Shown here: one piece after another, positions 5,138 through 57,720 of the stretch
How positions within the stretch are numbered: the stretch's first letter is position 1
Layout of the letters: every line of letters begins with the position of its first letter
Assembly: GCA_941918925.1 (NCBI GenBank)
Contig: OW799236.1
Span: forward strand, 73,250,465 to 73,314,464
Direction of reading: 5' to 3'
Length of the DNA stretch: 64,000 nucleotides
Source of the DNA: Phyto melanocephala
Taxonomy: Eukaryota; Arthropoda; Insecta; Diptera; Rhinophoridae
Notes under the pieces: generated by a model
The model's database searches: none
What the model was told of the DNA's origin: nothing
What the model saw: the letters and a program-made list of their open reading frames with translations, nothing else
Translations under genes and position numbers: made by a program

Positions 5138-5456
5138 ATTACAATTAGATGACTCTGGAGGTGAATCGTATATAATACCAGGCGACAGTCAACCCTATGA
5201 AGAATCAGATCACCACGAATCTACAAAGTCTCGTCAACGTCTGAGCAGCACCAATTCAACACAAGGTGGTACAAAATTAGCATGTGGTACACTACCACCG
5301 CCACCGCCCATTAACAAGACCACTTTGGAAAATGAAAAACGTATAAGACGTGAAATCGCCAACAGTAATGAAAGAAGGCGAATGCAAAGTATTAATGCCG
5401 GTTTTCAAAATTTACGTTTACTGCTACCACGTCATGAAGGTGAAAAATTGAGTAAG
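5138..5456 (+). CDS. crp: Transcription factor AP-4 (cropped), bHLH exon
   Basis: This exon encodes the basic region and most of the helix-loop-helix of the AP-4 family. The translation contains RIRREIANSNERRRMQSIN followed by AGFQNLRLLLPRHEGEKLSK, nearly the same as vertebrate TFAP4. AP-4 proteins dimerise and bind E-box DNA (CAGCTG core) in the nucleus. The basic region, helix 1 and the loop are complete. The exon ends at LSK|GTAAGT in phase 0, inside the start of helix 2, and joins the exon at 38300 (AAILQQT). Upstream of the bHLH are an acidic, Ser/His-rich stretch and a run of prolines (TLPPPPPINK). The 5' boundary is inferred from a pyrimidine-rich tract and AAG at 5135-5137; the AG at 5147-5148 is an alternative. 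An earlier exon with the start codon probably lies outside the window, because the in-frame ATGs at 5091-5125 fall within the apparent acceptor tract. Confidence 0.93.
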
Positions 5457-9565: not shown

Positions 9566-10864
9566 AAGAATGAGATCAGTGAAACCTTAACACACATTTT
9601 TAATTCCACCTTTCTTCATGCACAAAAAATATAACTGTTTATGATCAAGTTTGCATTTAAAAACTTGTCAAATTATGTGTACAAAATAATAGCATAATCG
9701 GATTATTAGTTTGTTTGAAAATGGATTCCGAAGAAAAAGTGCGTGAAAAAATAATAACAATTTTTTTAAAAAAATCCCAGTCGTACTTACAAATCTATTG
9801 CAAATGAGATAAAGGTGTCACGACAAACAGTTTCGCGTGTGATAAAAGTGTATAACGAACGTCGTAGTATTAAAAGGAAAGCTGGAAGTGGAGCTAAAAA
9901 ATGTATAACTGACCCACAGTTAGCTTCAAAGATTGTTAGTCTTCTAAACCAAAATCCCAACCTCTCAAACCGTAAAGCCGCCTTAAAAGCAAACTGTTCC
10001 GATTTTTTTGTAAGGAAGGTTAGAAGATATGAAGGCCTTAAGTCCTACAAGGTTCAGAAAGTGCCAGACAGAAATTCGAAGAAAAACTTGGATGCAAAAA
10101 GTCGTGCCAAAGAACTGCTTAGAAATTTTATCAACAAATATGAGTGTTGTATTATGGATGATGAGACTTACGTTCTTGCCGACTTTCTCAGCTCCCAGGT
10201 CGAAGTTATTATGTGGCCGATGGAAGAGGTAATGTCGATGACCAATTTAAGTTCCAAAAAAACACAAAGTTTCCAAAGAAGTACTTAGTTTGGCAAGCTA
10301 TATGCACGTGCGGAGAAAGAAGCAGTAAATTTTATTACTACTGGGACTATCAACACTGATATTTACATCAAGGAGTGCTTGCAGAAGAGGTTGCTTCCAT
10401 TCATACGAAAACACAATAAGTCAACAAATTTTTGGCCCGACCTAGCGTCGTGTAATTATAGTAAATCTGCAGCAGAATGGTATGAAACAAATAATATAGT
10501 GGTAGTGCCAAAAGAAGCAAATCCACCTAATTGTCCAGAACTAAGGCCCATCGAACGTTACTGGGCTTTAGTCAAAAGAGTGCTGAAGGATACAAAACAA
10601 GTTGCTAATACTACTAAAATTTTTTCCCAGAAATGGTCTTATTCCAGCAATAAAGTTACTAAGGATACCATCAAAACCCTCATGGTCTCAATTCCGGAAA
10701 ATGTGAAACAGTTCATCAAAAAAAGCTGAATTTTTACAAAAAACATTAATATTTTAATTTACTGTTATTTTATTGTTAAACCACGCTATTTTCATTAAAA
10801 TGGATTAATTCGTTTCAAAGTTATTGCGTTTTATTCGTGTTAGGGTTTTATCGATCTCATTCTT
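9566..10864 (+). mobile_element. Tc1/mariner (DD37E-type) transposon with TA target duplication
   Basis: It has ends AAGAATGAGATC and GATCTCATTCTT, and the inverted repeat continues imperfectly for about 30 bp (AAACC-TTAACAC against AAACCCTAACAC). TA at 9564-9565 and 10865-10866 is the duplicated target. Length is 1299 bp, normal for the superfamily. It carries one transposase gene, now broken by frameshifts. It inserted into a family A copy, so it is younger than that copy. Confidence 0.92.
9721..10729 (+). pseudogene. Tc1/mariner DD37E-type transposase, frameshifted
   Basis: The gene starts ATG at 9721 (MDSEEKVREKI), shifts frame at the T/A run near 9762-9775, then reads through the helix-turn-helix (SIANEIKVSRQTVSRVIKVY) and YKVQKVPDRN to the first catalytic aspartate in MDDETYV. 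A second shift occurs near 10200 (the continuation YVADGRGNVDDQFKF is in another frame), and a third near 10320-10330. The C-terminal block has the second aspartate in FWPDLASC and the third acidic residue in CPELRPIERYW. I count 37 residues between them, which fits DD37E elements. The protein is inactive in this copy, but the order and spacing are intact. Confidence 0.87.
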
Positions 10865-22403: not shown

Positions 22404-23093
22404 TATACCCTTCACACAGTGAAAAAGGGTATATATAGGTTTGTCATTCCGTGTGAAATTTCTACAATTTTGATTTCCGACCCCATAAAGTATATATTTT
22501 CTGAAAGCTTATGAATAGGGGAGTCGATTAAGCGCTGTCAGTCTGTCCGTGTGTATGTTGAAATTAACTTTTTGAAGCCCCCCGACATCGCTTGGACTCG
22601 GGTAAGGTATTATAATATCAGAAATATTCGGGAGTAGATCGCTATTGGAAATCAGAAACATCGGTACATAAACAACTTAGATATGAGCAAAAACCCACGA
22701 CCACCTCGATTTTTTTTTCACAAAAACAACATTACAACAACAACATATATACATACAAACGTGTATACTGGTTAGAGAAAACGTGGCATCGAATCCCAGC
22801 TGAGCAAAAAAAAATTTTTTTTTTATTTATTTTTTATTTAATATATTATTTATATTTTTATTATTATTTTTTTTTTTAATTATTTTTTTTTAAATTTTTT
22901 TTATTTTTTTTTTAACATACATATGTACGTAAATTTATAATTTTACAATGGGATGTTTTTATATATGTATGTTTTTTTATATGTATGTACGTATATCATA
23001 TGGAATGGTGATACAAACTACTGTTATTGCATGACTACACGTTGTGAAGGGTATATAAGATTCGGCACGGCCGAATATAGCGCTCTTACTTGT
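22404..23093 (+). mobile_element. Family A element, full length
   Basis: A good reference copy of about 690 bp. 5' module: TATACCCTTCACACAGTG then AAAAAGGGTATATATAGG, which can fold. Body: CCGACCCCATAAAGTATA, GTCTGTCCGTGTGTATG, GCCCCCCGACATCGCTTGG, CGTGGCATCGAATCCCAGC. T/A-rich core 22805-22915. 3' module: TGCATGACTACACGTTGTG, AAGGGTATATAAG, hairpin ATTCGGC/GCCGAAT, GCTCTTACTTG. It encodes nothing. Confidence 0.88.
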
Positions 23094-25623
23094 TTACTAT
23101 TATTTTTCTCTGTAGTATTTGTTTGTACTTTTTATTTGTAGAGTGGCAGTACTATTTTAATGTATGTACCTATTAAATTAAAAAATAAAACTTGCAAACA
23201 CAAAATTTTAAAGCTTTTCACAAGGCCACAATTTACAATACAAATACATTTGCGGATAAAAAAATAATAATAAAAAAATAACAAATGATGTAAACAGCTG
23301 ACAGTTATATGACTAATGTCAATCAGCTGATTTTTTTTTTAATTTGGATCTTGAATTTAATGATGTTTTGTGCATTTACATATGTGTGTATAATTTAGAA
23401 CCAATGTAAATAAATACCACATCTGCAGTTTTATTATTTATTTTTATTGTATAAAGGTGATGTTTTTTTCATCAATATTATTATGTTAAATTATTTGAAT
23501 TATGTAGGTATGTAAGTATGTTTTAAATATTTCTTCATATGTCGCCTATTATATAGTGTTTGTTTAGCTACGTTTCATAGCAATAGACCTTATGACAGAA
23601 AAAACATTTCGTTTTTGTTTAACCTATAAAAATTCAGTTGAGTACCTATAAGCTTTTAAAATTTTTAAATTGTCTATTATCTCATAGGTGCCTACAAGTT
23701 CTTTGTTAATTCAACTTGCTTGTTTTTCATGTACACCAAAGTTTACAAAATAGTCGTAAAAGTAAAAATAAAAAACACATATTTTGTAATTATAATTTAC
23801 AATTTTTTTTACCACCTTTAACAATTTTACAAAACGAAAAAAATTTTTCAAAATTTTGATATAAGATACATAAGTATCTACAATTGTAAAAATTGCTACG
23901 TAACACAGTGGTTACACAATCAAGTTTCAATACACTCATACTTTTAGAACTTGATGCGAACTTGCTTTTGAAATTCCCTTTCCATCGAATGTTTCAATTA
24001 ACAGTTAAGAAAACAGCTGAGTACAATTGTTGTGACGAATTTTTGGTTTTTTGTTGTTGTTAGTTAAAATTTTAGCGATAAATCGCAAACTTTCCTCATA
24101 AATTTCAAATTTTGTTTAAAATTTTAGCGATAAACCGTAAAAGTGTAGTATAATCCGCTGTTACACTTGGGAAATTAAAAGACAAAATAATAAAAAAAAA
24201 ATAATGAGTCTAAACAAGTTCAAAACATTTATTTACCCTTTTTTTTTTTTTTGTTCTAATAATTAAATAAATGGCTAGTTTTCAAACTAATAATGCCAGG
24301 GTATCCCACGATGGTTCAGTATCCGCAAGTCGACCTATACCTTCATATAGGAAGTCGGAGCTGAACGCAAAAAAAAAATTATTTACCTTTTTACTTTATT
24401 TTTTTTATCAAGAAAAATACTTCTAAACATTTTTATTTTTCTTGTATCTTTTCTTTGACTACAACTTGAATCAATAAGTGATAAAGGTAAAGCATAACAG
24501 ACAAAATTTAATTTGTAAAAGTTAGGTTTTTTTTATAACTATAAACATTCATACCTTCATAATCGCCACCAAAACTGATTTGTTGACTGCAATCGAAATA
24601 GATTTTACCATTCCCTTATTATCGCTGTTCTATTAAAAATCAGCTGTCTACTTCTCATCTCATTTTCTCTTCCATTACTGTCTTTTAAGTTATTTGCGTG
24701 TGTGTGTGTTTGGTATATACTTATATATATAATTTAACAATTTAAAATAATAGAAAGAAAAAATAAAAATAAACTACAACACGTGTTTGAAATGAGCTCT
24801 TAATGCGATAAGGTCATTCACTTAAATTTTTTTTATCTAAAAATAGTTTACTTTGTAGTTAATGAATGAATTTCAGCTTTTAGCTTTGTACCCCCATTGT
24901 TTGTTTGGTGATTAATGCTTACTTTAGTTAAGTCTGGAAGAGTTCAGTTCTGCTTTTCTTAATTTGTTAAATTGTTTAAATAGAAAACTACTTTCAGTTT
25001 TAATAAGTGATACCTATGTATTTACACTAATTTAAGTTTAAATAATTAACCAAATGTAATATTTTAAACATAAATCGGCTGATACAAAGAAAACGATATA
25101 CCTACAAATTTATCGAACACGTAAATGACTTAAAAAAGTGAGGTTGAAAATTTTGCTGAAAAATGTGGTTCTGTAATTTAAAATTTCACAAAAAAAAAAA
25201 TACATATTAATTTCACTATAGCCACTGATTTCTATATTTATATATGTATGTACATAAGTATATACCTAATTACAGTTTTTATAGGTTATTGGTGTTAATT
25301 TCTTAAAGGCCACTTCACACTTTTCTACAAGTCTTTAGATTTTCATTGGTTTTTGTCAGACCAAAATAAAATGATTTTTGGTCTGATTGTCAAAAAATCA
25401 AATAGAAAATTTTCTATCTACAATTTGTGTCTACACTATCACACTTAAAATAAAATACAATCTGTGTAGTATATAAACAGCTGTTTTTGTTATTTCAATA
25501 TAATACAATCGTATTTTTTCATACTAATTTTTATGGCATTTCATTAATTACTTTCTTAAACACATTCATTTAGCCTACATTAACATATGAGAGTACTTTC
25601 TTGAAATTGCTGTATACGTATTA
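23094..25623. other. A/T-rich non-coding intron DNA
   Basis: No gene recognised. Several CAGCTG motifs occur (e.g. 23296, 24013, 24643 as TCAGCTGT), some within short local inverted repeats such as CAGCTGACA..ATCAGCTGA near 23294-23330. GATCTAGAATTT-type signals or promoters are not evident. Confidence 0.4.
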
Positions 25624-26746: not shown

Positions 26747-27057
26747 CAGTGCTGTCTGGGTAGAACAATACATAGACAATACATAAAATGCGTATTTGTG
26801 AGAGCAAGGCGAATTCATTATCAGGTGAAGTTATAAAAGCAGCTGTTTATCAGCTGAGCACTCTTTTTAATATTGAAATGTCAAATTTTGTTTGTGTTTT
26901 TATGTGTGTTTTTTATTGTTTACTTGTTTACACATGTGGGCGCCATTAGTTGAAAAATTTTTAAAATTGTGAAAAATTGTGCAAATTCTCTTAAAAATTG
27001 TCAAAAAGAGATAAAAAAAATTGTGAATTGTGAAAAATTTAATAAAACGTTGAAAAA

Positions 27058-27778
27058 ACAAGTAACAGTGCTATATTCGGCCGTGCCGAATCTTATATAC
27101 CCTTCACAACGTGTAGTCATGCAATAACAATTGTTTGTGTCACCATTCATCTCATATAAAATTCGTACATATGTACATATATACTGGTTAGAATAAATGT
27201 GGCATCAAATCCCATCTGAACCAAAAAAAATTTATTTTATTTTATTTAATATATTATTTATATTTTATTATTTTTTTTTTATAATATTTTTTTAAAAAAA
27301 TTTTTAAAATTTTTCTTCAATTTTTTTTCAATTTTTTTTTGTATTTTTTTTATTTTTAATATATTTTTTATTTTTAATATATTTTTTTTGTAATTTTTTT
27401 TTTGTATGTTTTTTACATGTATCTATGTATGTATGTTGTTGTAATTGTGAAAAAAAACTAGGTGGTCGTGGTTTTTTGCTCATATCTCAGAAAGTTATGG
27501 GGCGATTGTGCTGAATTTCAATAGCGATTCATTCCTGGATATTTCCAAGAGATTGATACCATATACAGATCTGAGGAACATATAGTTGCTTCTTTAAGTT
27601 GATTTCAACCAACACACGGGCAGACGGACAGACAGTCAGGGCTTAATCGACTCCTCTATTCATAAGCTACTTATATATATATATATATACTTTATGGGGT
27701 CGGAAATGAAAATTGTAGAAATTACAAACGGAATGACAAAGCTATATATACCCTTGTGCACCACAGGTGAAGGGTATA
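27058..27778 (-). mobile_element. Family A element, full length, reversed
   Basis: It begins ACAAGTAACAGTGC with the hairpin ATTCGGC/GCCGAAT and ends GCACCACAGGTGAAGGGTATA. The 5' module is the GTGGTGC subtype of 30420 and 62785, unlike the ACAGTGAAA subtype at 22404. It contains a tandem-duplicated ATTTTTAATATATTTTTT segment in the core. Confidence 0.83.
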
Positions 27779-27824: not shown

Positions 27825-28179
27825 ACAAGTAAGAGCGCTATATTCGGCCGTGCCGAATCTTATATACCCTTCACAACGTGTAGTCATGCAATAACAGTAG
27901 TTTGTATCACCATTCATCCCATATAAAATACGTACATACATATATAAAATATCTCATTGTAAAATTATAAATTTACGTATGTATGTTTAAAGAAAATTAA
28001 AAAAAAATGTAAAAAAAAAAATAAAAAAAAATTTAAAAAAATAATTAAAATATATATAATAAATATAAAACAAAAAAAAAAATGAAAAAAAATTTAAAAA
28101 AAAAATAATAAAAATATAAATAATATATTAAATAAAAAATATAAAAACTAAAAAAAAAAAAAAAAAAAAAAAATTTAAA
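27825..28179 (-). mobile_element. Family A element, reversed, 3' half only
   Basis: It starts ACAAGTAAGAGCGC at 27825 with an intact 3' hairpin module and continues into the A-rich core, where the copy at 28180 begins. The remainder of this copy is not found beyond 28947, so it was probably truncated or fused with the next copy through the A-rich cores. Confidence 0.7.
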
Positions 28180-28947
28180 ACAAGTAAAAGCGCTATATTC
28201 GGCCGTGCCGAATCTTATATACCCTTCACAACGTGTAGTCATGCAATAACAGTAAATTCACGTATGTATGTTAAAAAAAACAAAAAAAAATAAAAAATAA
28301 AAAAAAAATTTAAAAAAAAAAATTTAAAAAAAAAATTTAAAAAAAAAAATTATTATATACATATATAATATATATAAAACAAAAAAAAAATAAAAAAAAA
28401 ATTAAAAAAAAAAAAATAAAAAAAAATAATAATAAAAATATATATAATATATTAAATAAAAAATAAAAAAAAAATAAAAAAAAAATTAAAAAAAAAATTT
28501 TAAAAAAAATTTAAAAAAAAATTTTTTTGCCTCAGCTGGGATTCGATGCCACGTTTTCTCTAACCAGTATACACGTTTGTATGTATGTATGTTGTTGTTG
28601 TAATGTTGTTTTTATGAAAAGAAAATCGAGGTGGTCGTGGGTTTTTGCTCATATCTCAGTTGTTTATGTACCGATGTTTCTGATTTTCAATACCGATCTA
28701 CTCCCGAATATTTCTGATATTTTAATACCTTACCCGGGTCCAACCTATGTCGGGGGGCTTCAAAAAGTTGATTTCAACATACACACGGACAGACGGTCAG
28801 ACGGACAGACTGACAGAGCTTAATCGACTCCCCTATTCATAAGCTTTCAGAAAATATATACTTTATGGGGTCGGAAATGAAAATTGTAGAAATTTCACAC
28901 GGAATGACAAACCTATATATACCCTTTTTCACTGTGTGAAGGGTATA
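28180..28947 (-). mobile_element. Family A element, full length, reversed
   Basis: From ACAAGTAAAAGCGC to TTTTTCACTGTGTGAAGGGTATA; 768 bp. All landmarks are present in reverse: CTGGGATTCGATGCCACG, ATGTCGGGGGGCTTC, CATACACACGGACAGACGG, CTTTATGGGGTCGG. It has the longest A-rich core of all copies. Confidence 0.85.
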
Positions 28948-30298: not shown

Positions 30299-31119
30299 GA
30301 CAGAGCTTAATTGACTCCCCTATTCATAAGCTTTCAGAAAATATATACTTTATGGGGTCGGAAATGAAAATTGTAGAAATTTCACACGGAATGACAAACC
30401 TATATATGTATACCCTTTTTATACCCTTCACCTGTGGTGCACAAGGGTATATATAGTTTTGTCATTGCGTTTGTAATTTCTACAATTTTCATTTCCGACC
30501 CCATAAAGTATATATTTTCTGAAAGCTTATGAATAGAGAAGTCGATTAAGCCATGACCGTCTGTCCGTCTATCCGTGTGTTGGTTGAAATCAACTTTTAG
30601 AAGCAACTATATGTTCCTCAGATCTCTATATGGTATCAATCTCTTGGAAATATCCAGGAACGAATCGCTATTGAAGTTCAGCACAATCGCCCCATAACTT
30701 ACTGAGTTATGAGCAAAAAAAACACGACCACCTCGTTTTTTTTCACAATTACAACAACAACCTACATACATACATACTGGTTAAAGTAAACGTGGCATCG
30801 AATTCCAGCTGAGCCAAAAAAATTTTATTTTATTGAATATATTATTTATATTTTATTATTTTTTTTAATATTTTAAAAATAATTATTTAAAAATTTTTTT
30901 TTTATTTTTTTTGTAATTATTTTTATTATTTTTTTTAATTTTTAATATATTTTTTTTGTAATATTTTTTTTTTGTATGTTTTTTTACATGTACGTATTTT
31001 ATATGAGATGAATGGTGATACAAACAATTGTTTTTGCATGACTACACATTGTGAAGGGTATATAAGATTCGGCACGGCCGAATATAGCACTGTTACTTGT
31101 TCACTGTGTGAAGGGTATA
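30299..31119 (-). mobile_element. Family A element (outer, partial), reversed, split by another copy
   Basis: 30299-30419 holds the reversed 5' portion (CTTAATTGACTCCCC to ACCCTTTT) and 31101-31119 the last piece (TCACTGTGTGAAGGGTATA). Together they rebuild CCCTTTTTCACTGTGTG as in the copy at 28180. The rest of this outer copy (toward its 3' end) is missing on the left. Confidence 0.8.
30420..31100 (+). mobile_element. Family A element (inner), full length
   Basis: Starts TATACCCTTCACCTGTGG and ends GCACTGTTACTTGT. 681 bp, GTGGTGC subtype. It sits inside the 5' hairpin of the outer copy, exactly between two Ts, with no duplicated bases. It is the best evidence in the window for the true termini of the family. 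Confidence 0.88.
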
Positions 31120-31322
31120 AAAAACAATAATTACAAATCACCACGGTTTTCGTTGATTTAAATTGCGTCGCCAAAAAAAAGTTGTGACTTTGAATTATGT
31201 ATGTAGGTGGAGTTTCGATTAAAATCGTTTTTAATACACGCGTACAGAGAGAATTGCCATTTTATTTCTTGTATTTTACCTACATCACGTATTTAAAATT
31301 GGATTTACATGTAGGTACATAC

Positions 31323-37342: not shown

Positions 37343-38299
37343 TTCATCTTTTTGTACTTCGGTGTTTGGTTAAAAGTTTAAATGCAATTATTAAGGAATT
37401 GATTGTATTTATGTTTATTAGAAGTAATAATGTACTAATCACCGATATGGAGGATAAATATAAAATAAAAATTTTAAAATGAAATAACCTACACCATTTA
37501 TAATAGTTTGTGAACATAGTGTCTAACAATGCCAAATGTCAGTGACCGTCATTGGAATGCAATTATGCAAAATAGCAACAATTCACAACTTTCTATGTGT
37601 ATGTACATATTTCCATATGTATGTAAACTATTCATAAATATACACCAGGGATGGCAAAATTGGTACAATTTTACTTTTTTTTTTTTGTACTATTTAAACT
37701 CGAAAAGTACAATGGTACAAAAATGGCTTATTTAATACAATCTAAACAAAGGCTTTAATGAATTCAAAAAATTGCAATAGTGGAAATAGTTTATACATGT
37801 TCAATATTGAGCAAGATAAAAGAGCAAGATTTTTGTCTTTCCAATCACAAAAAGTTTAACTTTAGAATTTTGGTAGTTTTTGCGACTATTTTTACGAAAA
37901 ACTTTATATTAGATCATGCTATATCAGCAGCGCGAACTAAAGTAAACCTGAGCAACCATTTACGGGGATACCCCTTTTTATAAAAACGATTTGGATAACC
38001 GTCAAATTTGTTCACGTTACCGCGAGTTTACTGTATATTCAGGAATTTGATGGAAATCATTTGTTTTTAATTCTTATTATTTTGCAACGGTGTATGAATT
38101 TTTACTAGTTATTTATCAAAAAAAAAAAAAAAAAAACATAAATAAACGAGTGTTTCTTTAACGAAATTCCTAGTTTGTTTACACTGAACCACTATTCCTA
38201 ATTTTTTAGTGATATAGTAAAATATGTACTGTATTTTAATTAGAGAATTATTGAAACTTTTTACTAATTTTTTACTCTCTGTTTTGGCTTGTCTTTTAG
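37343..38299. other. Intron DNA before the crp acceptor, with a possible hAT end
   Basis: At 37646-37666 CAGGGATGGCAAAATTGGTAC resembles a hAT-type terminus followed by internal repeats of GGTACAA and AAAGTAC, but the partner end is not found. Nothing else is recognised. A pyrimidine-rich run just before 38300 (GCTTGTCTTTTAG) is the crp splice acceptor. Confidence 0.4.
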
Positions 38300-39778
38300 G
38301 CTGCTATCTTACAACAGACATCGCAGTATATTTGCGAATTAGAAAATCAAAAAACTCAACTTTTGGCACAAAATAGCCAATTGAAGCGACAATTGGGACA
38401 ACATGAAGCAAGCAGCGGCGGCGGTGGTAGTGGCAATGCAGATGGTAGTAGCAATGGTGAAAATACAGGAGTAGCTATTAAGAAACGCAAATTAACTGAT
38501 AATGTGGCCAATGTTCAAACTATAAGCGATTCCTCAGATGAAGGTCTCGGATCAATGTCGCCCGAACCAATGACTTTATTAAATGCTGCCGGTGGTACGG
38601 TTGCCGTTAATACTAAGGCTCAAATACTATTGCAACAGACAACTAAAGAAATGGTGGAACTGAAGGAGCAGCTGTATAAGGAGAAACGTTTGCGTACGAT
38701 GTTGGAAGAGGAACTGCAGATGATTAAACGCCAATTGTATTCAGTTGCAACTGCACCCCAGCCATCCGCCGTTGAAGCCGACGACGAAACAGATGGCACC
38801 ACTACCACTTACATTCCTCGTGAAGTGATCGAACATACGGGCAATTTGCTGCGTGAAGAGTGTGAAGAGTTTTCCTATGTCGAAATTGATGAGCTGACGG
38901 GACAACAACAAGTGGTTGTGTGCTCAACCATTGAGGAATTGGATAGTGAAGCAGCGGCAGCTGCAGCCGAGATCATAACAGAGGACAATGTGCACGAAGA
39001 AGTCGTTTTGTCGTCATCCTCAACAGAGTCTGAACAGGAGGTAGCGGTGAATGCTATAGCAAAAGCCTATGCTGAGGGAAACTCTCCTACACCCGCCATG
39101 TTACAGCCCATCTTACAGGCAGCTATTAAGGCCACTCCCAAAGTCGAGGTGGAGCGTATAACAGATGCAACTTTAAAAAAAGTCAAAACTGAAAAAATTG
39201 AGCAAACCAGTGGTCTAACACGTTCCCGTCAAAATCTTGAAACGATAGTCGAGGCCATACGTCATCTTGAGGGCGATCATTTATTTACCGACAGCAACGG
39301 CGAACAGCACAAAGTGGTGGTACAGACGCAGGCCGTAAGAACAGTCGGTGGTCAGGATGCACCTCTGGCATTGACAACTAAACAGCATGTAGTAGCACAA
39401 CGTAAGACTTTGGCAGAATTAAGGCCTTTCTTACAGCTAAAGGGGGGCAGTAAACAAGTGACTATCGTAGGTGGTGGTGGAGCAGCCATGACTTTAACTA
39501 AATCTGGTACCGCAGTTATACAAAAAGATACTTCTAAAGGAACGGTAACAACAGGAGGTTCAAGTAGTGGAACAAATGTGACATCAGTTGTTTCTCCGCA
39601 AAATGTAACACCCACCGCTATTTTTAAAGTTCAGACAAATCCCACTGGTGGCAGTACAACAATAACTAAAGTTGGTGCCACGACATCAGGAGGACATGGT
39701 ACTGGTAGTTTAACCATAAGTACTACGGCAGTAAAACAATGCCGTCCCGGTGTTATTGTGGCCAAACAACTATCTTGA
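38300..39778 (+). CDS. crp: Transcription factor AP-4 (cropped), leucine-zipper and C-terminal exon
   Basis: It continues the AP-4 frame from 5456 in phase 0. The first residues AAILQQTSQYICELENQKTQ finish helix 2 and lead into the first zipper (LLAQNSQLKRQL), as in vertebrate AP-4. A poly-Gly/Ser linker follows, then DNVANVQTISDSSDEGLGS, which aligns with the AP-4 'DEGIGSPD' motif. A second coiled coil (TKEMVELKEQLYKEKRLRTM then LEEELQMIKRQLYS) matches the conserved second zipper. After that come an acidic, Ala/Glu-rich stretch and a Gly/Thr/Val-rich tail, probably activation or interaction regions. 492 codons to the TGA at 39776-39778. Codon use is far more G/C-rich than the surroundings. 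The exon start is set by the acceptor TTTTAG|GCTGCT. Confidence 0.93.
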   Translation, partial: AAILQQTSQYICELENQKTQLLAQNSQLKRQLGQHEASSGGGGSGNADGSSNGENTGVAIKKRKLTDNVANVQTISDSSDEGLGSMSPEPMTLLNAAGGTVAVNTKAQILLQQTTKEMVELKEQLYKEKRLRTMLEEELQMIKRQLYSVATAPQPSAVEADDETDGTTTTYIPREVIEHTGNLLREECEEFSYVEIDELTGQQQVVVCSTIEELDSEAAAAAAEIITEDNVHEEVVLSSSSTESEQEVAVNAIAKAYAEGNSPTPAMLQPILQAAIKATPKVEVERITDATLKKVKTEKIEQTSGLTRSRQNLETIVEAIRHLEGDHLFTDSNGEQHKVVVQTQAVRTVGGQDAPLALTTKQHVVAQRKTLAELRPFLQLKGGSKQVTIVGGGGAAMTLTKSGTAVIQKDTSKGTVTTGGSSSGTNVTSVVSPQNVTPTAIFKVQTNPTGGSTTITKVGATTSGGHGTGSLTISTTAVKQCRPGVIVAKQLS

Positions 39779-41110
39779 TTTCGCGGTCTTTCAGCAACAG
39801 CAGAACAACAAACAACAAAGCAGCAACAAACACAAAATCAACAATTGCAACACAATAAAGTTGTTTTGAAATTCAGAAACGCAGCCTTGAAACATCAAAA
39901 TTTTCATCAGCCATATAAGAACGATGTCGTCGTCAGAGATAACGGTGACAGCGATGATGACGATGATCAAGAAAATGTTAAAACATTTAAGGAGTTTGAA
40001 GACCATTTACAGAAATTAATAGAAAATAAAATAGAAGAAAATGGTATAGAAGTAAATCAAGAAGTTGAACAAGTTGTGGTAGATGAAGAGGATTATATAG
40101 TTGAAAATGAAATTTATGAAATAAATGAAATTTTTGAAGAAATTGTTAATAAAACTGAATTTAATAAAACCACCACCAAATCACCGCAATTTTCTTTGTC
40201 AACTTTGCCATTTTCTACTGAAAATTCGATGAAAACTATAATTAAATCAAATGTTCAAATTTATGAAACCAATAATAAACAAATTAAAACTAGTAATTCT
40301 AATTGTAAGAAAGAACAACAAATTGAAAATGTTACTACTATAAGTAATGCAAATCGTAATAATTTAAAACAAATTTTACCCAAAATAAATGATGATAAAA
40401 ATGAGCAAGAAGTTAAAGAAAAGAAACTATTTAAACAAAAACAACAGCAAAATAAAACATTTTTGAAAAATAATTTTAATTTGAATAAGAAACGTAATAA
40501 TATAATTGATAGTAATAAGAAGTTGTTTAGTTATAATTGTAATAATAATGATAATAAAAAAAATTATAATTATTTAAAAAATAGCTTTAAGTCTAGTATT
40601 AATAAAAATGTAAATTTTTTAAATAACACTACAATAGCAAATTGCAGTAAAGGCAACAAACATCCAACAATTTCTATTTCAAATAATAATTATATTTCTA
40701 ACATTACAACAACTACTACTAATACAGATAAAACAATTACAACAACTACTCCCTTAATTAATCGTAATTATAATTATAAACAAATTCAACATATTAAAAA
40801 TAATAATAATAAAAATCTTATAAAAAAAAATGTTAATAATAATACAAATACACTATCGAAAAAGTTAAATAATCTTGCTTCTCTTATTATTCCTAATAAT
40901 AAAAAAATGTTCACAACACAACCAAAAAAATATTCATGCCATTTAACTTTACCATCATCATCATCATCGTTGTCCTCTTCCTCCTCTACTAAAATTTTAA
41001 CGAAAAATCTTCATCGTTACAAACAAAATTCATCAATTAACAATAATGCATGTAAAAAGAAGAAAATACGTAAAAATCGATTCGTTCCCACTTTGGAAAA
41101 TAATAACTAA
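39779..41110 (+). CDS. crp: In-frame C-terminal extension after the crp TGA (candidate readthrough)
   Basis: Immediately after the TGA, the same frame is open for 443 codons to TAA at 41108-41110. It starts FRGLSATAEQQTTKQQQTQN, has an acidic block (NGDSDDDDDQENVKTF then EDYIVENEIYEINEIFEEIV), long Asn/Lys/Thr-rich stretches, a Ser run, and a basic end (KKKKIRKNRFVPTLENNN). At this A/T content a random frame should meet a stop about every dozen codons, so the frame is very probably translated in some form. Possible routes are stop-codon readthrough, A-to-I editing, an intron from 39705 (GTAGTT) to 39794 (TTTCAG) that would remove the TGA and keep frame, or a sequence error. An independent downstream start is less likely: there is no ATG near the beginning. 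Confidence 0.62.
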   Translation, partial: FRGLSATAEQQTTKQQQTQNQQLQHNKVVLKFRNAALKHQNFHQPYKNDVVVRDNGDSDDDDDQENVKTFKEFEDHLQKLIENKIEENGIEVNQEVEQVVVDEEDYIVENEIYEINEIFEEIVNKTEFNKTTTKSPQFSLSTLPFSTENSMKTIIKSNVQIYETNNKQIKTSNSNCKKEQQIENVTTISNANRNNLKQILPKINDDKNEQEVKEKKLFKQKQQQNKTFLKNNFNLNKKRNNIIDSNKKLFSYNCNNNDNKKNYNYLKNSFKSSINKNVNFLNNTTIANCSKGNKHPTISISNNNYISNITTTTTNTDKTITTTTPLINRNYNYKQIQHIKNNNNKNLIKKNVNNNTNTLSKKLNNLASLIIPNNKKMFTTQPKKYSCHLTLPSSSSSLSSSSSTKILTKNLHRYKQNSSINNNACKKKKIRKNRFVPTLENNN

Positions 41111-42882
41111 AACACTTTTATACATTTGGAAAATATTTAAAAGAAATTTCTTTGAAATTAAAACTTTAAACATTATCAAGAAAATAAAAATGTTCTGAAT
41201 GAAAATAATGCTTCAATTATATACATATGTATAGTAACTCATAAAACAATTTGAAATCGAAATCACAAGAAAAAATCAAGGCATATCGATATGCCTTGGA
41301 AAAAATGTTTTAAAATTTAAAATTTTATTCGGATTAATTTACTGTTTTTTTTTAATTTGAAATTAAAATAAATATTTTCAAATATTCGTGTATATATTTT
41401 GAGTAAATGTAAAAAATGCAATTTATTTAAAAGTCTAAAATTTCATTTACATTATAGCAGTAGTAATGCAAAACGCTTACATTATCTCACATGAAAACTC
41501 AAATGTACATATTCTTTGCTAAAGAAAATTGTTTTAACCTCTGTCGTTCTTTTAAATGTTTTGCTGTAATACGATGATAATAACTAAGGTGACGGAAAAT
41601 GGTGTAGAGACAAAAAACTGTAGAAGAGAAGTTGTAAGAAATAATGCTGAAACCATTATTATAGACTTCTGAAGATTTGTTTTTCAAAGAAGATAAAAAT
41701 CTGACGGAAATAAGATTGTAGTTGATAATTTTGCCATTAAACATACAGCTAACAAATTGTACATAAGTATCTAACACGCTGGGCATGAAATTTTTATTTA
41801 TGAACCCATCTTTCCTTTAGTTTCGATTGCAGCAGCAATGAAAGTTTTTTTTTTAAACAATTTAATATAACGAACAACATAAAAACAATTTTGTAGTACT
41901 TTATAAATATGAAAAAATGGTTTTAAATATGACCGTTCATTTAATAAATGTGAAAGCCGGTACTTCTAAAAGAAAATAATTATTTTTCCTTCAATAATGG
42001 CATTTTGCGTAATATTGGTGATTTTGATAATTAAATAGCGGTTGTATGTGATGGAAATCGTTTTAAAATAAAAAAAAAGATGTGATACAATTGAACTTTA
42101 TAGACTTTATTTCAGTTTTTATTTTATTATTTTTTTTTTATAAAAATCTGTTATTTAAAATCTAATCTAAATTTGTATCAAAATAAGTAGATATTAGGTA
42201 AATTATTAAATTGGAAATTTTTTGAAATTCATCGCGTTTAAGAACGATTTCATTTAAAATCGAACGGTTTTCCTCACATACCTCGATAGTTATAATTTTA
42301 AATCACAAGCATGTGCTGAGATTAGTTGGTGTATTTTACTATCTCAATAATGTCGTTTTTAATTCGACCTAGCTTGTTTTGTCACTTCGGCGAATACGAA
42401 CTACGTATAACATAAAGCAAAATCTGAAGACTGTCATCAAATATTTTAACAAAATCTGTATTGGGCTTTATTTAAAGCTTACTCAAAACTTACTATGCAA
42501 AAGTTTATTATTCGGACGGCCCGAGTTTGAAATTTAAGCTAATACAACATTTCATTTCGCATATGAATGACGATTGCAAATTTAAATCGCGAAGTTCACA
42601 GTTGCGATTTCAAATCCAAGAAGATTCTTTTAATTTTTTAATAAAAATAAAATAACGGTTTAAAATTTCAAAAAACAAAATTTTCGAAAATCAGCGTTTT
42701 AATTGATGTGGAGAATTTCCGTTACAAATAAGTTTGAAATTACAGACAGGCTCTCTTTAGTGTTCAAATAGATTCCAATCATGGACTATTAGCAAGATTT
42801 CATTTTAGGAAAAATTTTCCTGTTCGTGAATGCATCACTGCAAACGTAATGACATTTACAATTAAAATTCAATATCTATGTA
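41111..42882. other. Probable crp 3' UTR then intergenic DNA
   Basis: AATAAA signals occur at about 41183 and 41369, fitting a 3' end soon after the extension frame. After 41.4 kb there is no recognised gene. Small frames such as 41499-41786 (minus) have no recognisable content. Confidence 0.45.
41277..41298. repeat. Perfect 22-bp palindrome in the presumed crp 3' UTR
   Basis: CAAGGCATATC followed directly by GATATGCCTTG. In RNA it could form an 11-bp stem only with a strained loop; as DNA it could be a dimer-protein site. It lies about 170 bp after the final TAA. Confidence 0.8.
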
Positions 42883-43680
42883 GGTTAGGTTAGGTTGAAA
42901 AGGAGGGGTATAAAAGCCCAAACCCATGACAGGTATACACCTATGCCCAGTTGGCATGTTGTGCGCTCCATGTGGAAAACGGAATTCCCAAACAAAAAAC
43001 CATAAACATAATTTCCCATAAATAACGGACTAGTCCAAGAAACCAGTCCCCTCAATGTAACGCCTTATGGATCTCCAGTTCGAGTTCCCCAGGTATTCCA
43101 AGTTCGGCATATTATCTACTGTAAAATTTTCGCGCCTAATATGCCCAAACGCAGGACAATGACAGAGGTAGTGTACCAGGGTCTCATCCTCTTCCTCACA
43201 AGCTCTACATGTCGTCTCCTCAGATAATCTCATGCGAGCTAGATGAGTTCTCAACTCCGTATGACCTGTAATCACACTGGTTAGTTTCCTAAGTGTAGGT
43301 ATACTTAGTCTCAGAATCTCCTTTGATTTCCCAAGATTTGGGTCACCCCATAGTGTTCTTGTCACCTTACCGACATCAGTGCTTTGCCATTTTCTGACAT
43401 GTTCTTCCATTGCCCAACGTTTAAGTTCATCCTTAAATCGTTTAAGGGGTTTGGCGTTCTCCAAAGTTATAGTACTCAAAAGAGCTCCCATTTTGGATAA
43501 TTTGTCGGCTTTCTCGTTTCCGATCAGCCCGTGATGGCTTGGTATCCATATTATCTCCAGATGTTCACAATTTGCATATGAGTTTATCTCACTCTTGCAT
43601 TGCAAAACGTTCCGGGATTCAACTTTCTCCTTTCTCAATGTCCTAATCACTGATTGGCTATCCGTAAAGATACGAATCGG
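42883..43680 (-). mobile_element. 5'-truncated non-LTR retrotransposon with RNase H
   Basis: It is flanked by a perfect 11-bp duplication ATATCTATGTA (42872-42882, 43681-43691). On the minus strand the frame is open from the truncation point: IRIFTDSQSVIRTLRKEK, then CEHLEIIWIPSHHGLIGNEK and ADKLSKMG, the RNase H DSQ..WIPSHxGxxGNExAD core. It ends in a Cys/His region (CRACEEEDETLVHYLCHC) and EGTGFLD-stop at 43030. The 3' end finishes in AACCTAACCTAACC repeats. The frame is uninterrupted, so the insertion is young. Confidence 0.92.
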
Positions 43681-46600
43681 ATATCTATGTAAGTCTCAAT
43701 TCTCATTCTTTGAAATGACAATTTTTGAACAGTTAAAGGTCGGATTTCAAACTTTATATGAATAAATACGTATTCACTTATCAATATTTTTTTTATCGAG
43801 GCATATTTATTTATCAGATAGTCTTGATTCATTAGCTGATTCACTTATTTTAAACTTTGGATGTTAAAGTCCATAGATAAAAAATGCATTTCTTCCAACT
43901 GTGAAACTTCATGTACAGAAAATATAAACAACCCAATTTTCTCCGAACTTCGATTACCTGATGAATAAATATGCCTTGTTTTATATGAAGTACAACAAGT
44001 TCTGTGTACTAGGTTTAATTTAAAATTAAAAGGTCTTCGAAAGTTAAAATTATATTATTAAATGAAATATTTTGTTTTATGGAAAACTCGAAATTTTTAA
44101 ATATTCGCCCCTATTACGATTGTCATAGTCGTTAAACATATTCAGCCTTAAGTATATTAAATTTTGTATGTTTACCATCGAGCTGCTATTTTTCCAAAAG
44201 GTGAATTTACACAAACAAAAGTAAGTAGTTAATTAGTTAACACACAGTCTGCCTTATTGTCGTGTCTCTTCCCTGACGAAAACAACAGAAATACAACAAG
44301 ATTTTTATTATTCCTTTTACATAGTCGTAAATACAAAAAAATACTACAACGTCATTGACAACAAGGCTGAGTGTCTTATGTCTGCCTAACGCTGATTACT
44401 GGTACCCTATAAGCTGAATTATACCTTCGTCGTGTTTATTTGTAAAGCTTCGTTCAAATATTTGCTGAAATAAGGACCTCTATTTTTTGATAAATTATTA
44501 TTCAATGCTTATGTACTTGTTTCCACACCAAATATCGTCAAGACATAATTACTAATATTGCAATTTGACTAAATTAGGAAATTTTTAACTTAATAAGTGA
44601 GCAGTTATTTATAACATTTAAGTGGTTATGTCTGTTTCGTTAAATATTTTCAAAATGGTAACATACCTTTAGTCATTTTTTTTCGACTATCGTGTTACCA
44701 ATTTAAAAAAGAACAAATTTTAAGTGTTAAAAAAATTGACATAATTTAAACGTTTTTATTTTTAAAAAATGTTTTTTTTACAGTTTTATTTATCTATTTT
44801 CACAAACTAACAGTGTAATACAAAAAATATTCAAAATTAATCGGCTACCTATAATTTCTAACAACTTTTGCAAAATTTAACCAAGCAATATAAAAATAAA
44901 ATAAATAAAAATATACAAAAACAAATAAAATTCTTTTTTTATAAAGAAAACAAAAATCATCTTTTTTTTTTAGCAATATACCAACCAACAACAACAAAAA
45001 GTACAAACTCAGAGAAAATAGAAAAAAATTTAAACGAAAACTGAACTAAACAAAAATAAAATACATAAAAATAATTAAATTGTTTATTGAAAAAAAAACG
45101 TTTATAAAAATATAAATGTACACATATAACATAGTAATATACTAAATAAATATTATGACTTATTATTTGTAATATTTAAGTTTTTATAAATAAATTACTA
45201 TTGTTTAGTTATTAAGCACTCAAAACCATCGCATTTTATTGTGTTTTTTTTATTTTTTCTTTTCTGTAATTTTTTGGTTAAGAATTAATCAAAAAAACAC
45301 AAAATTTATAGACGCGTTGTTCAATAGGATACAGAAGAAAATATGTCTTAAACCTTTTCAAAAAAAAAAAATTTTACGTAAATTTGTATTTGAAAATCCA
45401 AATTTCTATTAAAAAAGATGTTCACTCATTGATGATGATTCGTTTTAAGATTCCTTCTTTTTTTCCATAAAAATTAAATACACATTACAAATTTTTAATT
45501 TTATTTCGAGTTTAAAAAGTTAGTTTTTTTTATTTATTTATTTTTAAGAATTTATCAAAAAGTTTCCGTATTTCATATATTATTGTTAAAAAAGTAAATA
45601 AAGTCTCGGATTTCCTCGTATCTACAGTTTATTCGTTAAAAATAATTTTTAAATTCTACATGGAGTTTGCAATAAACAAATAAACCTATTATTTAACAGT
45701 TAAACTGAGTAATAAATAAATCCCAACTTAACCGGGTTATAATTCTTATTTGTAACGATATTCTGTTTTTTTTTTTCTTTTTATTTAATGTGGAAGTAAA
45801 AGGTAAATGAACTTAAATATTTTATACAAAATTTGGCTTGTTGTAAAGTTTTGGAATCAAAAAAGCAACACAGAAAAAGTCCAATTATATATATATATAT
45901 ATTTAATGAAAATTTAGCTTAATTTTATAAATAAATTTCAAAATTATTGAAAATAAATTTGTGACATAATTGTAACTAATTAAACTTTGTTTATTTTTAA
46001 GTTAAATTAATCATATATTGGCTTTTAAAAAGCAACGAGAGAAAACTTTGTTTCATTTAAAAAATAAACAACTTTAAAAAATCTATGCTTTATTTAAAAA
46101 TAATTCTACTGATTATGTAAATATGTAAAAATTTTTCTATTTTCTTTATGCAAGTTATTTACAAAAACGATTTTTGAGATGAATTTTTTAAAATAAAGAT
46201 TAAACTGTGCTCCTTGTTAGTAAAGAATTGGAAATACACGTTTAATCAAATATATACATTTACATATTATAAAATATTGAAATAATAATAATGAAATTCC
46301 AAAAACCATAAGTTTATTGAACTTTTCTGATTTCTTTTTTAGATAATTTTTTTTAAGGTCTGTTTTATGTAACTGAAATATTAAAATTTATAATTTCTGT
46401 GAAATTATGTTATGTTAAATATTTAGTTATTAATTTCTCAAAAGCAAAAAATAAATAAAAGTATATATTTACATATAAATAAATAAATTACATGAAACCC
46501 CTTTAATACATCTTTAAAAAGATTAAACAAGTTTTACAATTTTTATTAAAAAAAACGAAAAAAAAATAAAAAATCGGATAACAATTATATAAAACATTAA

Positions 46601-48653: not shown

Positions 48654-50396
48654 TTGGTTGGTTGGTTATCGTGGTAGTTCGCTGCACGCCAACAGTCAAG
48701 TAGAGTCTGTATGACTCCGTTTTGACAGGACCACATCACTCGTCAGCTTCTAGTGTATCTCAGAATAAAATCCAAGAGTAAGGGTACTAGATCCACCCCG
48801 TGGCCCTGAGATATCTCAGTAGATAATTCAGTCCAACTTCAGATATCGCAGAGAGGCCATCTAGAATATGTTCGCCCAGAAATCTGTGTCTCTTAGCCGC
48901 CAGTGCAGGACATTCGCAGAGAAAGTGGAAAACCGATTCCTCCTTCTCTCTATCCAGACAACTGCGACAATGGTCGTTCGATGGGAGTCCGAGCCGACTT
49001 GCATGTTCGCCTAACATCCAGTGACTCGTCAATACCGCCAGCAACCTCGATATGTCCCTCCGACTTCGACTGGTAAGTTGCAATGTACGTCGTGCATCAA
49101 AAGAGGGCCACGTAAGCCGTGCCACCTTACACGTGCTCAGCCCACGCCACCTGTTATCAGCCTTCCGGAGAAAGTGTCTGGAGATTCTGCTTTTAATAGT
49201 CCCCAACGGGATTGCAACTGCAATTGCATTAGAGATATCCAGAGCAGATCCTCCCCTGGCTAGCCCATCAGCACGCTCGTTACCATAGTGGCCCTTATGC
49301 GCAGGAATCCAAACTAGAGTAACGTCAGCCCGCTGACCAAGCCTTGACAGTTCCTTTCTACATTGGCCAACTAATTTAGACGTAATAATGTATGACCTGA
49401 GTGACAAGAGTGCCGCCTGACTGTCGACAAATATACCAATGCTCCCGTGGATATTCCCGTCATTCAGTATCCTACATGCTTCCCTGATAGCGAGTACTTC
49501 CGCCTGAAAAACGCTGCAATCATCCGGAAGACGGAAGGAGAGTTCAATCTCCGGTCCATCAGAGAAGACACCAGATCCAACACCACATTCCATCCTCGAA
49601 CCGTCAGTATAGATCCTGGTGTCAAAGCTCCCCAAAAGGCGACCCCCATTCCACTCTCTCCTGGAGGGAATAAGAACCCTGAACGCCCCATCAAAATCCA
49701 TGTAGGGCGTAATGTAGTCAGAGGGTTGATTCACGCTCGAAGGCAGCGTGGCCAATATACTCGCATGGCCATACGTCCTCGACCTCTAACATCCAGTCGC
49801 ATTAAGCCTCACCGCACTACTTGCGGATGTGGCCAATATATGAATATCTATGGGAACGAGATGCAACATAGTGTTCAGCACCTCCGAAGGACTAGTTCGC
49901 ATCGCTCCCGTTATCCCAATGCATGCCGATCTCTGTACTCTATACAACTGGTCCACAACATATTTACGCCCCGTTGCAGTCCACCATACCAGAGATCCAT
50001 AAGTGAGAATCGGACGTACTACGGCCGTATACATCCATTTAATCATGTTGGGGGTAAGTCCCCATTTCCTAACAAACATCCCACGACACGTGTAGTAGGC
50101 CACCGTAGCCTTCTTCACCCTGTGCTGGACGTTCAGCTTCCATGACAATTTAGAGTCCAGGATAATACCCAGATATTTCGCCCTATCCGATAGGGGAATT
50201 CCGCAGTTCCCCAACCTCGGTGGTCTGAAGGTCGGAATCTTGGTTTTTGTTGTGAACAGTACCAGTTCCGTTTTGCTTGGGTTTACTACTAGACCGCTGT
50301 CCGTGGCCCAGTTTCTTAATAATCTCAAGGCATCGGACATGATATCGCTAATCACGTCCGGAAACAGTCCCGATACTAGTATCACAACATCGTCCA
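48654..50396 (-). mobile_element. 5'-truncated non-LTR retrotransposon (RT and RNase H)
   Basis: It has a 13-bp target duplication AAACAACGTAGAC (48641-48653, 50397-50409). The minus frame begins at the truncation point in the RT catalytic motif (VLDDVVILVSGLFPD), then LVVNPSKTELVLF, AKYLGIILDSKLSWK, MYTAVVRPILTYGSLVWW. A single TAG at 49786-49788 interrupts, and the same frame continues to RNase H: TRIYTDGSRMECGVGSGVF, FQAEVLAIREAC, IGIFVDSQAALLSL, VTLVWIPAHKGHYGNERADG, then a zinc-knuckle-like CRSCLDREKEESVFHFLCEC and a stop at 48787. The 3' end is CCAACCAACCAA. All four RNase H acidic residues are present. Confidence 0.93.
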
Positions 50397-50446
50397 AAAC
50401 AACGTAGACACTATCAGGAAAAAATTTACTCCATGCTTTAACTATA

Positions 50447-50602
50447 AGAGAACAGACAAAACTCTATGAAAAAAGGCGTTGCAATTAAACGAACTATTTC
50501 CAGAATCACCAAATGTAAAGAGAGCAGACAGGACTGTTTATGAAAAAAGGTGTCGCAATTAAACGAAATATTTCCAGAATCACCAAATGTGAATAGAGAA
50601 GC
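50447..50602 (+). repeat. Tandem duplication (about 78 bp x 2) inside the LINE linker
   Basis: The unit containing TATGAAAAAAGGCGTTGC, AATTAAACGAACTATTTCC and AGAATCACCAAATGTAAA is repeated with few changes (second copy TATGAAAAAAGGTGTCGC). A similar but shorter local duplication (TATAATAGCTTTACAGG) lies at 48135-48180 in the same LINE. Confidence 0.8.
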
Positions 50603-56784: not shown

Positions 56785-57720
56785 TCATTGCATTTGAAGG
56801 TTAATACTTTCTAACTCCTTTTGTCGTATCTGTAGTTCCATTTGCTTTATTTGAACGTTTAGTTGTTGTTCCTTTTCTTTAATTTCAAGGGTTTTCTTTT
56901 TTATTTCAATAAGTTGACTATTAAGTTCGGTATCCTTTTTTTTAAGTTCTAGATTTTTATTTTTTATTTCTATCAAAGTATCCAATCTTTTCAACATCTC
57001 CTTTTGGTAGAGTTCGGAAGTCGAAATATTTTTCTTAAGCAAACTATTTTTGGTTTCCTTTTCCTTACGGCATGTTTTTGGAAGATTCTTTCGCACAGGC
57101 ACAGCATTTTCCTTCCCACCATCATCTTCAATATCCAATAAGGAAGACATCTCATTTTCAATACCAATGTCTTCATCTTCAGAAAATAAACAAGGAGATT
57201 CTTGTGATGTTGTAGCATGGACATCATTTTCATTTGTAAAATTTGGTGGAGGTAGTTCTTCCACTGCGTTTGTTTGCAAAAGCAATCCATAACTTTTAAC
57301 AGTTTTCAGACCCTCGACAGCGATTTCTATACCTGCTGCAGCCATTATCTGCTCCTCCACTTGAGAAAGGACTTTCTCTTCATATGGGCCACCACCTGTT
57401 CTTCTTTTTGAAGACTTATTAAAAGAAAGCTTCTTCTTGACGTTTTGTTTTTGATCAGCGTATACCTACGTACAAATTTATCACATACTAAAGTAAGAAA
57501 ACTTATTTTTTATCTTTAACTTGCGCCACATCTTTGCATCTTTTGTTGGTGGGCCAGAGGCATTTAGCTTAAGGGTAAGTTGCTCCCAAAGTTGATTAGC
57601 TTTTGCTTTTCCTTGGGAACTATTAGGCAATAAACTTTTTGCTAAGTCCGAATGTTTTGTCATAAAATTAGTATTTCCTTCTGCGCATAATTTATGTTTT
57701 GCACTTTGGACCTAATATTA
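56785..57720 (-). CDS. Harbinger Myb/SANT-like (Naif1-type) partner protein
   Basis: Read from right to left. The first visible part (about 57715-57530) encodes KHKLCAEGNTNFMTKHSDLA then KSLLPNSSQGKAKANQLWEQ and LTLKLNASGPPTKDAKMWRK, the trihelix Myb/SANT-like domain of Naif1-type proteins (LW..L...LN..GP..D...W). After a short intron (about 57528-57470, donor not resolved) it continues VYADQKQNVKKKLSFNK, RRTGGGPYEEKVLSQVEEQI and a long tail ending at 56785. The tail is an acidic region then a Lys/Glu/Leu-rich coiled coil of about 80 residues. In known Harbingers this protein carries the transposase to the nucleus and to the DNA ends. The start exon is not certain. Confidence 0.75.

What the first reader, a model, noticed from the sequence alone, without database searches (positions are those of the whole stretch)
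39776..41110. 443-codon in-frame extension after the crp stop codon
The AP-4/cropped frame stops at TGA (39776-39778) and then remains open for 443 codons to TAA. A random frame at this A/T content would be expected to stop roughly every dozen codons, so 443 open codons in exactly the same phase is very unlikely by chance. The extension has an acidic block, long Asn/Lys runs and a basic C-terminus. Efficient readthrough is known for many fly genes, mostly with shorter extensions; one of this length on a bHLH-zipper factor would give a long isoform with a quite different tail. The base after TGA is T, not the C that most favours readthrough.
Basis: partly seen in the sequence, partly recalled or inferred. 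Interest (0 to 1): 0.88.

Follow-up and report, generated by a model that had tools for sequence, protein, structure and literature searches.

The report
Hidden long tail on fly AP-4
In a blowfly-like genome, the gene for the transcription factor Cropped (AP-4) is followed, right after its stop codon, by a further 443-codon stretch that looks protein-coding, so the fly may make a second, much longer form of the protein; whether the stop is read through or spliced out is not settled, and both routes are known kinds.

Summary
It is not chance: 0 in-frame stops, while 6,000 dinucleotide-shuffled frames averaged 36.7 and never had fewer than 19. All 124 stop triplets in the stretch lie in the other two frames. 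Three-base periodicity (z=37) is as strong as in the crp exon and nearly gone after the TAA. It is already strong in codons 34-150, before the first in-frame ATG, so a separate ATG-started gene does not explain it. The stretch is very likely a coding tail of crp.

The route past the stop is open. Readthrough is my first choice (0.55): frequent in flies and known for other transcription factors. Splicing (0.33) is a serious rival: the only strong acceptor-like site in the 2.8-kb exon-plus-tail ends 16 bases after the TGA, in frame with one of the exon's two best donor-like sites, and the first 33 codons show no significant coding signal. A tsetse gene model also continues past this stop into an acidic, Asn-rich tail, but the two tails are not significantly alike. 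No other fly DNA was available for conservation tests. New member of a known kind.

The parts
5138..5456 (+). crp coding exon 2 with the first part of the bHLH domain; donor AAG|GTAAGT
   Evidence: tblastn of P0001; Pfam PF00010 HLH E=3.2e-9 on 5139-5456; sequence. Coding exon 1 lies outside the window at G000:C4:73225974-73226066
38300..39778 (+). crp last coding exon, canonical C-terminal part (492 codons plus TGA)
39776..39778 (+). canonical TGA stop; the next base is T
   Evidence: stop position shared by 116 of 120 listed homologues
39779..41110 (+). in-frame 443-codon extension ending in TAA 41108-41110: Q/T-rich start, acidic block, Asn/Lys-rich middle, basic end
   Evidence: 0 in-frame stops against 27 and 97 in the other frames; period-3 z=37; one full copy in the genome, the other 42 matches weak and confined to about 40450-40873
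39878..40228 (+). codons 34-150 of the extension: strong coding periodicity before any in-frame ATG
   Evidence: period-3 z=15.7, 0 of 300 shuffles reach it; first in-frame ATG is codon 151
39793..39794 (+). best acceptor-like AG (CTTGATTTCGCGGTCTTTCAG|CA), 16 bases after the TGA
   Evidence: only site scoring >=13 in 38300-41107; ranked list
39402..39403 (+). donor-like GT (AAC|GTAAGA, 7 of 9 consensus bases), one of the two best in the exon and in frame with 39794 (393-nt putative intron)
40229..40231 (+). first in-frame ATG of the extension (codon 151)
41157..41188 (+). first two AATAAA/ATTAAA hexamers (41157, 41183) after the second stop; 15 others lie inside the extension

Best explanation
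The stretch codes for an optional C-terminal extension of Cropped/AP-4. Most crp translation ends at the conserved TGA and gives the ordinary protein. A fraction of ribosomes decode the TGA with a near-cognate tRNA and continue for 443 codons to the TAA, giving a long form whose extra tail is low in complexity and probably disordered (Q/T-rich, acidic, then Asn/Lys-rich, basic end). By analogy with the readthrough tail of the fly factor Vvl/Drifter, the tail would change how strongly, or with which partners, the factor regulates its targets. Shown here: the open frame, the coding signature of codons 34-443, and the shared position of the first stop. Inferred: readthrough as the route, its level and tissue, disorder of the tail (from composition only), and the effect of the tail.
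For: Zero stops and strong three-base periodicity in exactly the phase of crp; a tail reached by splicing could lie in any of three frames. The coding signal starts before the first in-frame ATG. The listed models of Lucilia (two species), Cochliomyia, Stomoxys (isoform X2), Haematobia (isoform X2) and Musca (two species) end at the canonical stop, as expected if the tail is reached in translation rather than by a common splice. No SECIS match at E<=1. Prior: 328 D. melanogaster genes annotated with readthrough, UGA commonest (PMC4528330 passages); 75 of 703 Drosophila transcription factors predicted to undergo it (PMC8417969 passages); long fly extensions tend to be disordered and low in complexity (PMC4999894 passages).
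Against: The base after the TGA is T, not the favoured C. No unusual RNA structure downstream (z=-0.49 and -0.62). No CAGCAGCA 8-mer, enriched in readthrough genes (PMC5100048 passages), in 39526-41107. The first 33 codons after the stop are not significantly periodic (z=1.5, 23 of 300 shuffles as high). The strongest acceptor-like site of the region lies 16 bases after the stop. No homologue of the tail was found within the length limits of the two searches. The passages seen on immunoblots of Drosophila Cropped name 85- and 78-kD forms plus a smaller variable band, no larger form (PMC4430030).
Confidence: 0.55

Rival explanations
1. The tail is coding but is reached by alternative splicing inside the last exon: an in-frame intron that contains the TGA is removed, with acceptor 39794 and donor 39402 (393 nt) or 39705 (90 nt), or another in-frame pair. 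Keeping that segment gives the ordinary protein.
For: Acceptor 39794 is the only site scoring >=13 in 38300-41107; window-wide 3.9% of positions have such a site within the next 20 bases (one search used a score window shifted by one base, in which no site reached 13). One of the exon's two best donor-like sites (AACGTAAGA) is in frame with it. TTGAT over the stop could serve as a branch point (consensus recalled). The first 33 codons after the stop show no significant coding periodicity. The Glossina brevipalpis model P0009 joins ...QCRPG directly to a 300-aa acidic and Asn-rich tail, that is, it passes over the stop by a splice.
Against: Donors are weak: of 95 GT sites in the exon two reach 7 of 9 consensus bases and none 8 or 9, against AAG|GTAAGT of crp exon 2. 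Either splice would remove the shared C-terminal motif QCRPGVIVAK. No listed model except P0009 is longer than 700 aa; but the list holds only 90%-identity representatives, other isoforms were not seen, and whether those species have the tail is unknown. Frame 0 is required for readthrough but only one of three outcomes here. The P0009 junction may be a device of the gene predictor.
Confidence: 0.33
2. The tail belongs to a separate product: a downstream cistron started at an internal ATG, or a terminal exon joined to some other upstream exon of crp or of an unseen transcript.
For: Acceptor-like sites exist at 39794, 39876 and 39910; in-frame ATGs at codons 151 and 377.
Against: Coding periodicity is strong in codons 34-150, before the first in-frame ATG (z=15.7). 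Exon 2 ends in phase 0 while acceptor 39794 leaves phase 1, so a direct join to it would shift the frame (coordinates). The frame equals that of crp.
Confidence: 0.08
3. The open frame is an accident of A-rich, AAT-repeat-rich 3'UTR sequence and is not translated.
For: Extreme composition (47% A), Asn runs made partly of AAT repeats, no detectable protein homologue, similarity to the tsetse tail not significant. The 1.3 kb after the TAA also shows slight periodicity (z=2.2, 10 of 300 shuffles as high).
Against: Zero stops where 6,000 shuffled frames have at least 19 and Markov models up to order 6 at least 11; 17 of 17 AATAAT in the Asn phase; strong codon-position bias also in codons 34-150, before the AAT runs listed.
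Confidence: 0.02
4. The TGA is turned into a sense codon by A-to-I editing of 39778 (UGA read as UGG), or read as selenocysteine.
Against: No SECIS match among 4,227 Rfam models at E<=1 in 38200-43500. None of the 25 longest of 65 inverted repeats in 37800-43000 covers 39778 (the other 40 were not shown).
Confidence: 0.02

Closest known systems
Stop-codon readthrough of Drosophila vvl/drifter (dfr), a POU transcription factor (PMC8417969; abstract and passages seen)
   Same: Fly transcription factor; C-terminal extension in frame after the stop that is rich in repeats and disordered; its sequence aligns poorly between mosquitoes and flies while its general make-up persists.
   Different: dfr uses UAG and is supported by mass spectrometry, antibody staining and a mutant; a stem-loop affects its efficiency (PMC13170385, passages). 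Here TGA-T, no notable structure, no experiment.
Headcase and Kelch readthrough in Drosophila (mentioned in passages and references seen; tail lengths not seen)
   Same: Fly readthrough proteins with experimental support.
   Different: Neither is a bHLH factor (recalled); a stem-loop is said to be necessary and sufficient for headcase (PMC8417969 passage).
Catalogued comparative-genomic readthrough genes of Drosophila and Anopheles (PMC4528330 passages; PMC5100048 passages)
   Same: Second ORF in frame 0, coding signature up to the second stop, TGA as first stop.
   Different: Those were called from multi-species alignments, which could not be made here. Whether crp is on their lists was not seen, because the lists are supplementary: the main texts of PMC3840789, PMC4528330, PMC5100048 and PMC13170385 hold neither 'crp' nor 'cropped'.
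Exitrons: introns inside protein-coding exons (PMC4484396 and PMC10985678, search listing only)
   Same: An in-frame segment of a coding exon that may be spliced out; splice-site-like ends are present here.
   Different: By the abstract of PMC10985678 an exitron holds no premature stop codon, whereas this segment would hold the normal stop; there is no junction evidence here.

Membership tests
Programmed stop-codon readthrough gene (fly type) | Second ORF in frame 0, open directly after the annotated stop | tested here: met
Programmed stop-codon readthrough gene (fly type) | Protein-coding signature in the second ORF that stops at the second stop | tested here: met
   Single-genome signature only: period-3 z=37 in the tail, 2.2 in the 1.3 kb after TAA, 0.2 in an intron stretch; 0 in-frame stops. 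No multi-species score.
Programmed stop-codon readthrough gene (fly type) | Coding signature in the segment directly after the first stop, so that a downstream splice acceptor is excluded | tested here: inconclusive
   First 33 codons z=1.5, 23 of 300 shuffles as high; strong acceptor-like site at 39794
Programmed stop-codon readthrough gene (fly type) | Not explained by initiation at a downstream ATG | tested here: met
   First in-frame ATG is codon 151; codons 34-150 already coding-like
Programmed stop-codon readthrough gene (fly type) | Not a selenoprotein | tested here: met
   No SECIS match in 38200-43500 at E<=1
Programmed stop-codon readthrough gene (fly type) | First stop conserved in place and codon identity across species | tested here: inconclusive
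   Place shared by 116 of 120 listed proteins; codon identity not visible without DNA
Programmed stop-codon readthrough gene (fly type) | C after the stop, downstream RNA structure or CAGCAGCA 8-mer; enriched among readthrough genes, not obligatory | tested here: not met
   Base is T; fold z=-0.49 and -0.62; no 8-mer in 39526-41107
Programmed stop-codon readthrough gene (fly type) | Codon-level conservation of the tail among related flies (PhyloCSF) | not testable with these tools
   No other fly DNA is held; the one listed protein with a long tail after this stop (P0009) is not significantly alike
Programmed stop-codon readthrough gene (fly type) | Ribosome footprints, peptides or tagged protein from the tail | not testable with these tools
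   No expression data here
Stop removed by alternative splicing in the last exon | In-frame donor and acceptor flanking the stop | tested here: inconclusive
   Acceptor 39794 strong, donors 39402 and 39705 weak, frame kept
Stop removed by alternative splicing in the last exon | Junction reads or a long annotated isoform | tested here: inconclusive
   Among the 120 listed homologues only P0009 is longer than 700 aa; no reads available
crp / transcription factor AP-4 orthologue | bHLH domain and crp-like C-terminal exon, at the best-matching locus of the genome | tested here: met
   PF00010; three coding exons in order on one contig; about 91% identity to Lucilia over the last exon

The most novel reading that the evidence does not exclude
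Cropped/AP-4 of higher flies has an unrecognised long isoform with a 300-440-residue acidic and Asn-rich tail, made by readthrough of an ancient stop and kept at least from tsetse to blowflies by composition rather than by sequence; its use would be regulated by tissue and would switch AP-4's activity in growth and tracheal branching.
Probability: 0.3. Interest if true: 0.55.

Novelty: new member of a known kind. Interest (0 to 1): 0.42.

Why it matters
AP-4/Cropped controls tracheal terminal branching and cell growth in Drosophila (PMC4430030, title and passages). A second form with a 443-residue tail would be a separate product that stop-to-stop annotation misses; all the models seen end at the canonical stop except the tsetse one. 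It would add a bHLH-zipper factor to the fly transcription factors predicted to be extended past the stop, and it offers a simple test between two ways of extending a protein, translational readthrough and splicing-out of the stop, at one site where both look possible.

Tried and rejected
Chance open frame: rejected on stop counts and periodicity. Mobile element or repeat: the tail has one full copy; the 42 other matches are weak (best 67% over 385 bases) and fall in the AAT-rich part; seven of those places were looked at as open-frame lists only. Recent nonsense mutation: rejected, because 116 of 120 listed homologues end at the same place. Downstream ATG cistron: disfavoured. Selenocysteine and editing: no support.

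Homology of the tail: searching residues 1-160 of the tail gave 237 candidates, none at E<=10; searching a two-row alignment of the tsetse and own tails scored 7,985 candidates, none at E<=0.01; both see only proteins of limited length. Own tail against the tsetse tail: 48 to 87 of 300 window shuffles reached the local score and 71 to 97 of 300 the global score; with a composition-adjusted matrix 144 to 175 of 500; a hand-picked sub-segment (SSINKNVNF against SSIINKKNVHF) was reached by 321 and 334 of 1,000. I had thought this segment convincing by eye; it is not. BLASTP found nothing useful. Pfam found no domain in the tail or in the last exon alone.

A first acceptor control used a score window shifted by one base and is not comparable; one search repeated it with the same window. 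Structure prediction was not run: a single low-complexity sequence would not be informative.

Full report
The window lies on a 133.6-Mb contig of a 740-Mb, nine-contig assembly. The gene is the orthologue of Drosophila cropped (transcription factor AP-4). Its coding exons are at C4:73225974-73226066 (upstream of the window), window 5138-5456 (bHLH start, PF00010) and window 38300-39778. Nearest listed proteins are blowfly ones: Lucilia sericata 91%, L. cuprina 89%, Cochliomyia 87% over the last exon; the species was not identified.

The finding is accurate to the base. After TGA 39776-39778 the frame stays open for 443 codons. In this stretch the other forward frames hold 27 and 97 stops, and all 124 stop triplets are out of phase. 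Dinucleotide shuffles give 36.7 stops per frame with a minimum of 19 in 6,000. Because the stretch has AAT repeats, I also simulated Markov models up to order 6; their minimum was 11 in 1,200 frames per order. All 17 AATAAT words lie in the Asn phase. Codon-position periodicity is z=37 in the tail, 26.5 in the crp exon, 2.2 in 1.3 kb after the TAA and 0.2 in an intron stretch; the slight residual after the TAA (10 of 300 shuffles as high, or 2 of 300 by the second statistic) is noted.

Where does the coding signal begin? Codons 34-150 are strongly periodic (z=15.7), and the first in-frame ATG is codon 151. A separate cistron starting at that ATG therefore does not account for the signal. Codons 1-33 are not significantly periodic (z=1.5, 23 of 300; second statistic z=1.0, 36 of 300), so the data do not show that the bases directly after the TGA are translated.

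This matters because of splicing. Scoring acceptors by pyrimidines in the 15 bases before AG plus a bonus for YAG, one site in 38300-41107 reaches 13: AG 39793-39794, 16 bases after the TGA. In the window as a whole there are 131 such sites among 2,787 AGs, and 3.9% of positions have one within the next 20 bases. Donor-like sites in frame with it are AAC|GTAAGA at 39402 (7 of 9) and CTG|GTAGTT at 39705 (6 of 9); none of the 95 GT sites in the exon reaches 8. These are plain consensus counts, with the consensus recalled, not a trained splice model.

Relatives. Of the 120 listed homologues, 116 end at the canonical motif. The one with a long tail is Glossina brevipalpis P0009, whose model leaves the exon at ...QCRPG and continues for 300 residues: an acidic block with DDDDD, then an Asn-rich stretch. 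The layout resembles the window's tail (DDDDD block, then Asn/Lys-rich), but no alignment score exceeded shuffles that keep local composition. It is a hint that long open coding sequence after this stop is older than blowflies, not a demonstration. No other relative of the tail was found. The list holds 90%-identity representatives, so further isoforms may be hidden, and no fly DNA other than the window's own assembly could be searched.

Signals for readthrough at the stop are mixed: TGA is the commonest stop in fly readthrough genes (PMC4528330; PMC5100048), but the next base is T, RNA folding is unremarkable and the CAGCAGCA 8-mer is absent from the tail and the 250 bases before the stop.

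Weighing. For readthrough: frame identity, weak donors, lack of long annotated isoforms among the models listed, and the frequency of readthrough in flies, including predicted readthrough of 75 of 703 transcription factors (PMC8417969). For splicing: the position of the single strong acceptor and the silent first 33 codons. I put readthrough at 0.55 and splicing at 0.33; a coding tail by one of these two routes at about 0.88.

Known or new. Hundreds of fly genes are annotated or predicted to have such extensions, 4 to more than 1000 aa long and mostly 8-300 (PMC4528330 passages). In the passages seen, the Drosophila study of Cropped reports a 631-aa product and 85- and 78-kD forms, with no larger form named (PMC4430030). 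The finding is a good candidate for a new member of a known kind.

Noticed in passing
window 39854-40903: Fifteen AATAAA/ATTAAA hexamers lie inside the extension, mostly an effect of Asn-Lys codons; premature polyadenylation could also decide whether an mRNA carries the tail.
   Followed up: no
window 5457-38299: The 32.8-kb crp intron holds many copies of an element whose chance frames read ...CYCMTTRCEGYIRFGTAEYS..., on both strands (for example 22941-23141 +, 27001-27204 -, 28045-28257 -, 30939-31130 +): an interspersed repeat, not classified.
   Followed up: no
window 48787-50463 (-) and 43030-43695 (-): Retrotransposon remnants downstream of crp: RNase H (PF00075) at 48790-49785 and 43033-43695, and a weak reverse transcriptase match (PF00078, below cut-off) at 49789-50463.
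   Followed up: partly
window 9770-10288 (+): Tc1/mariner-like or paired-type helix-turn-helix frame in the crp intron (PF00292 above cut-off, PF01498 below).
   Followed up: partly
window 56785-57465 (-): Open frame of 226 codons with a charged coiled-coil-like end and no Pfam match.
   Followed up: no
P0086 (573 aa, unnamed source): A crp homologue that continues ...RPGVIVVKQNSWVHKINGKAENYNSKFSIKKKFKNNYRNI, with W where others stop; possibly a TGA read as Trp by the gene caller, or a true sense codon.
   Followed up: no
L003 (G000:C2:103415399-103418777), locus position 499 onward: A 799-codon open frame whose start reads as Gly/Asn-rich, collagen-like sequence (by eye), found through similarity to the Asn-coding part of the tail.
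   Followed up: no
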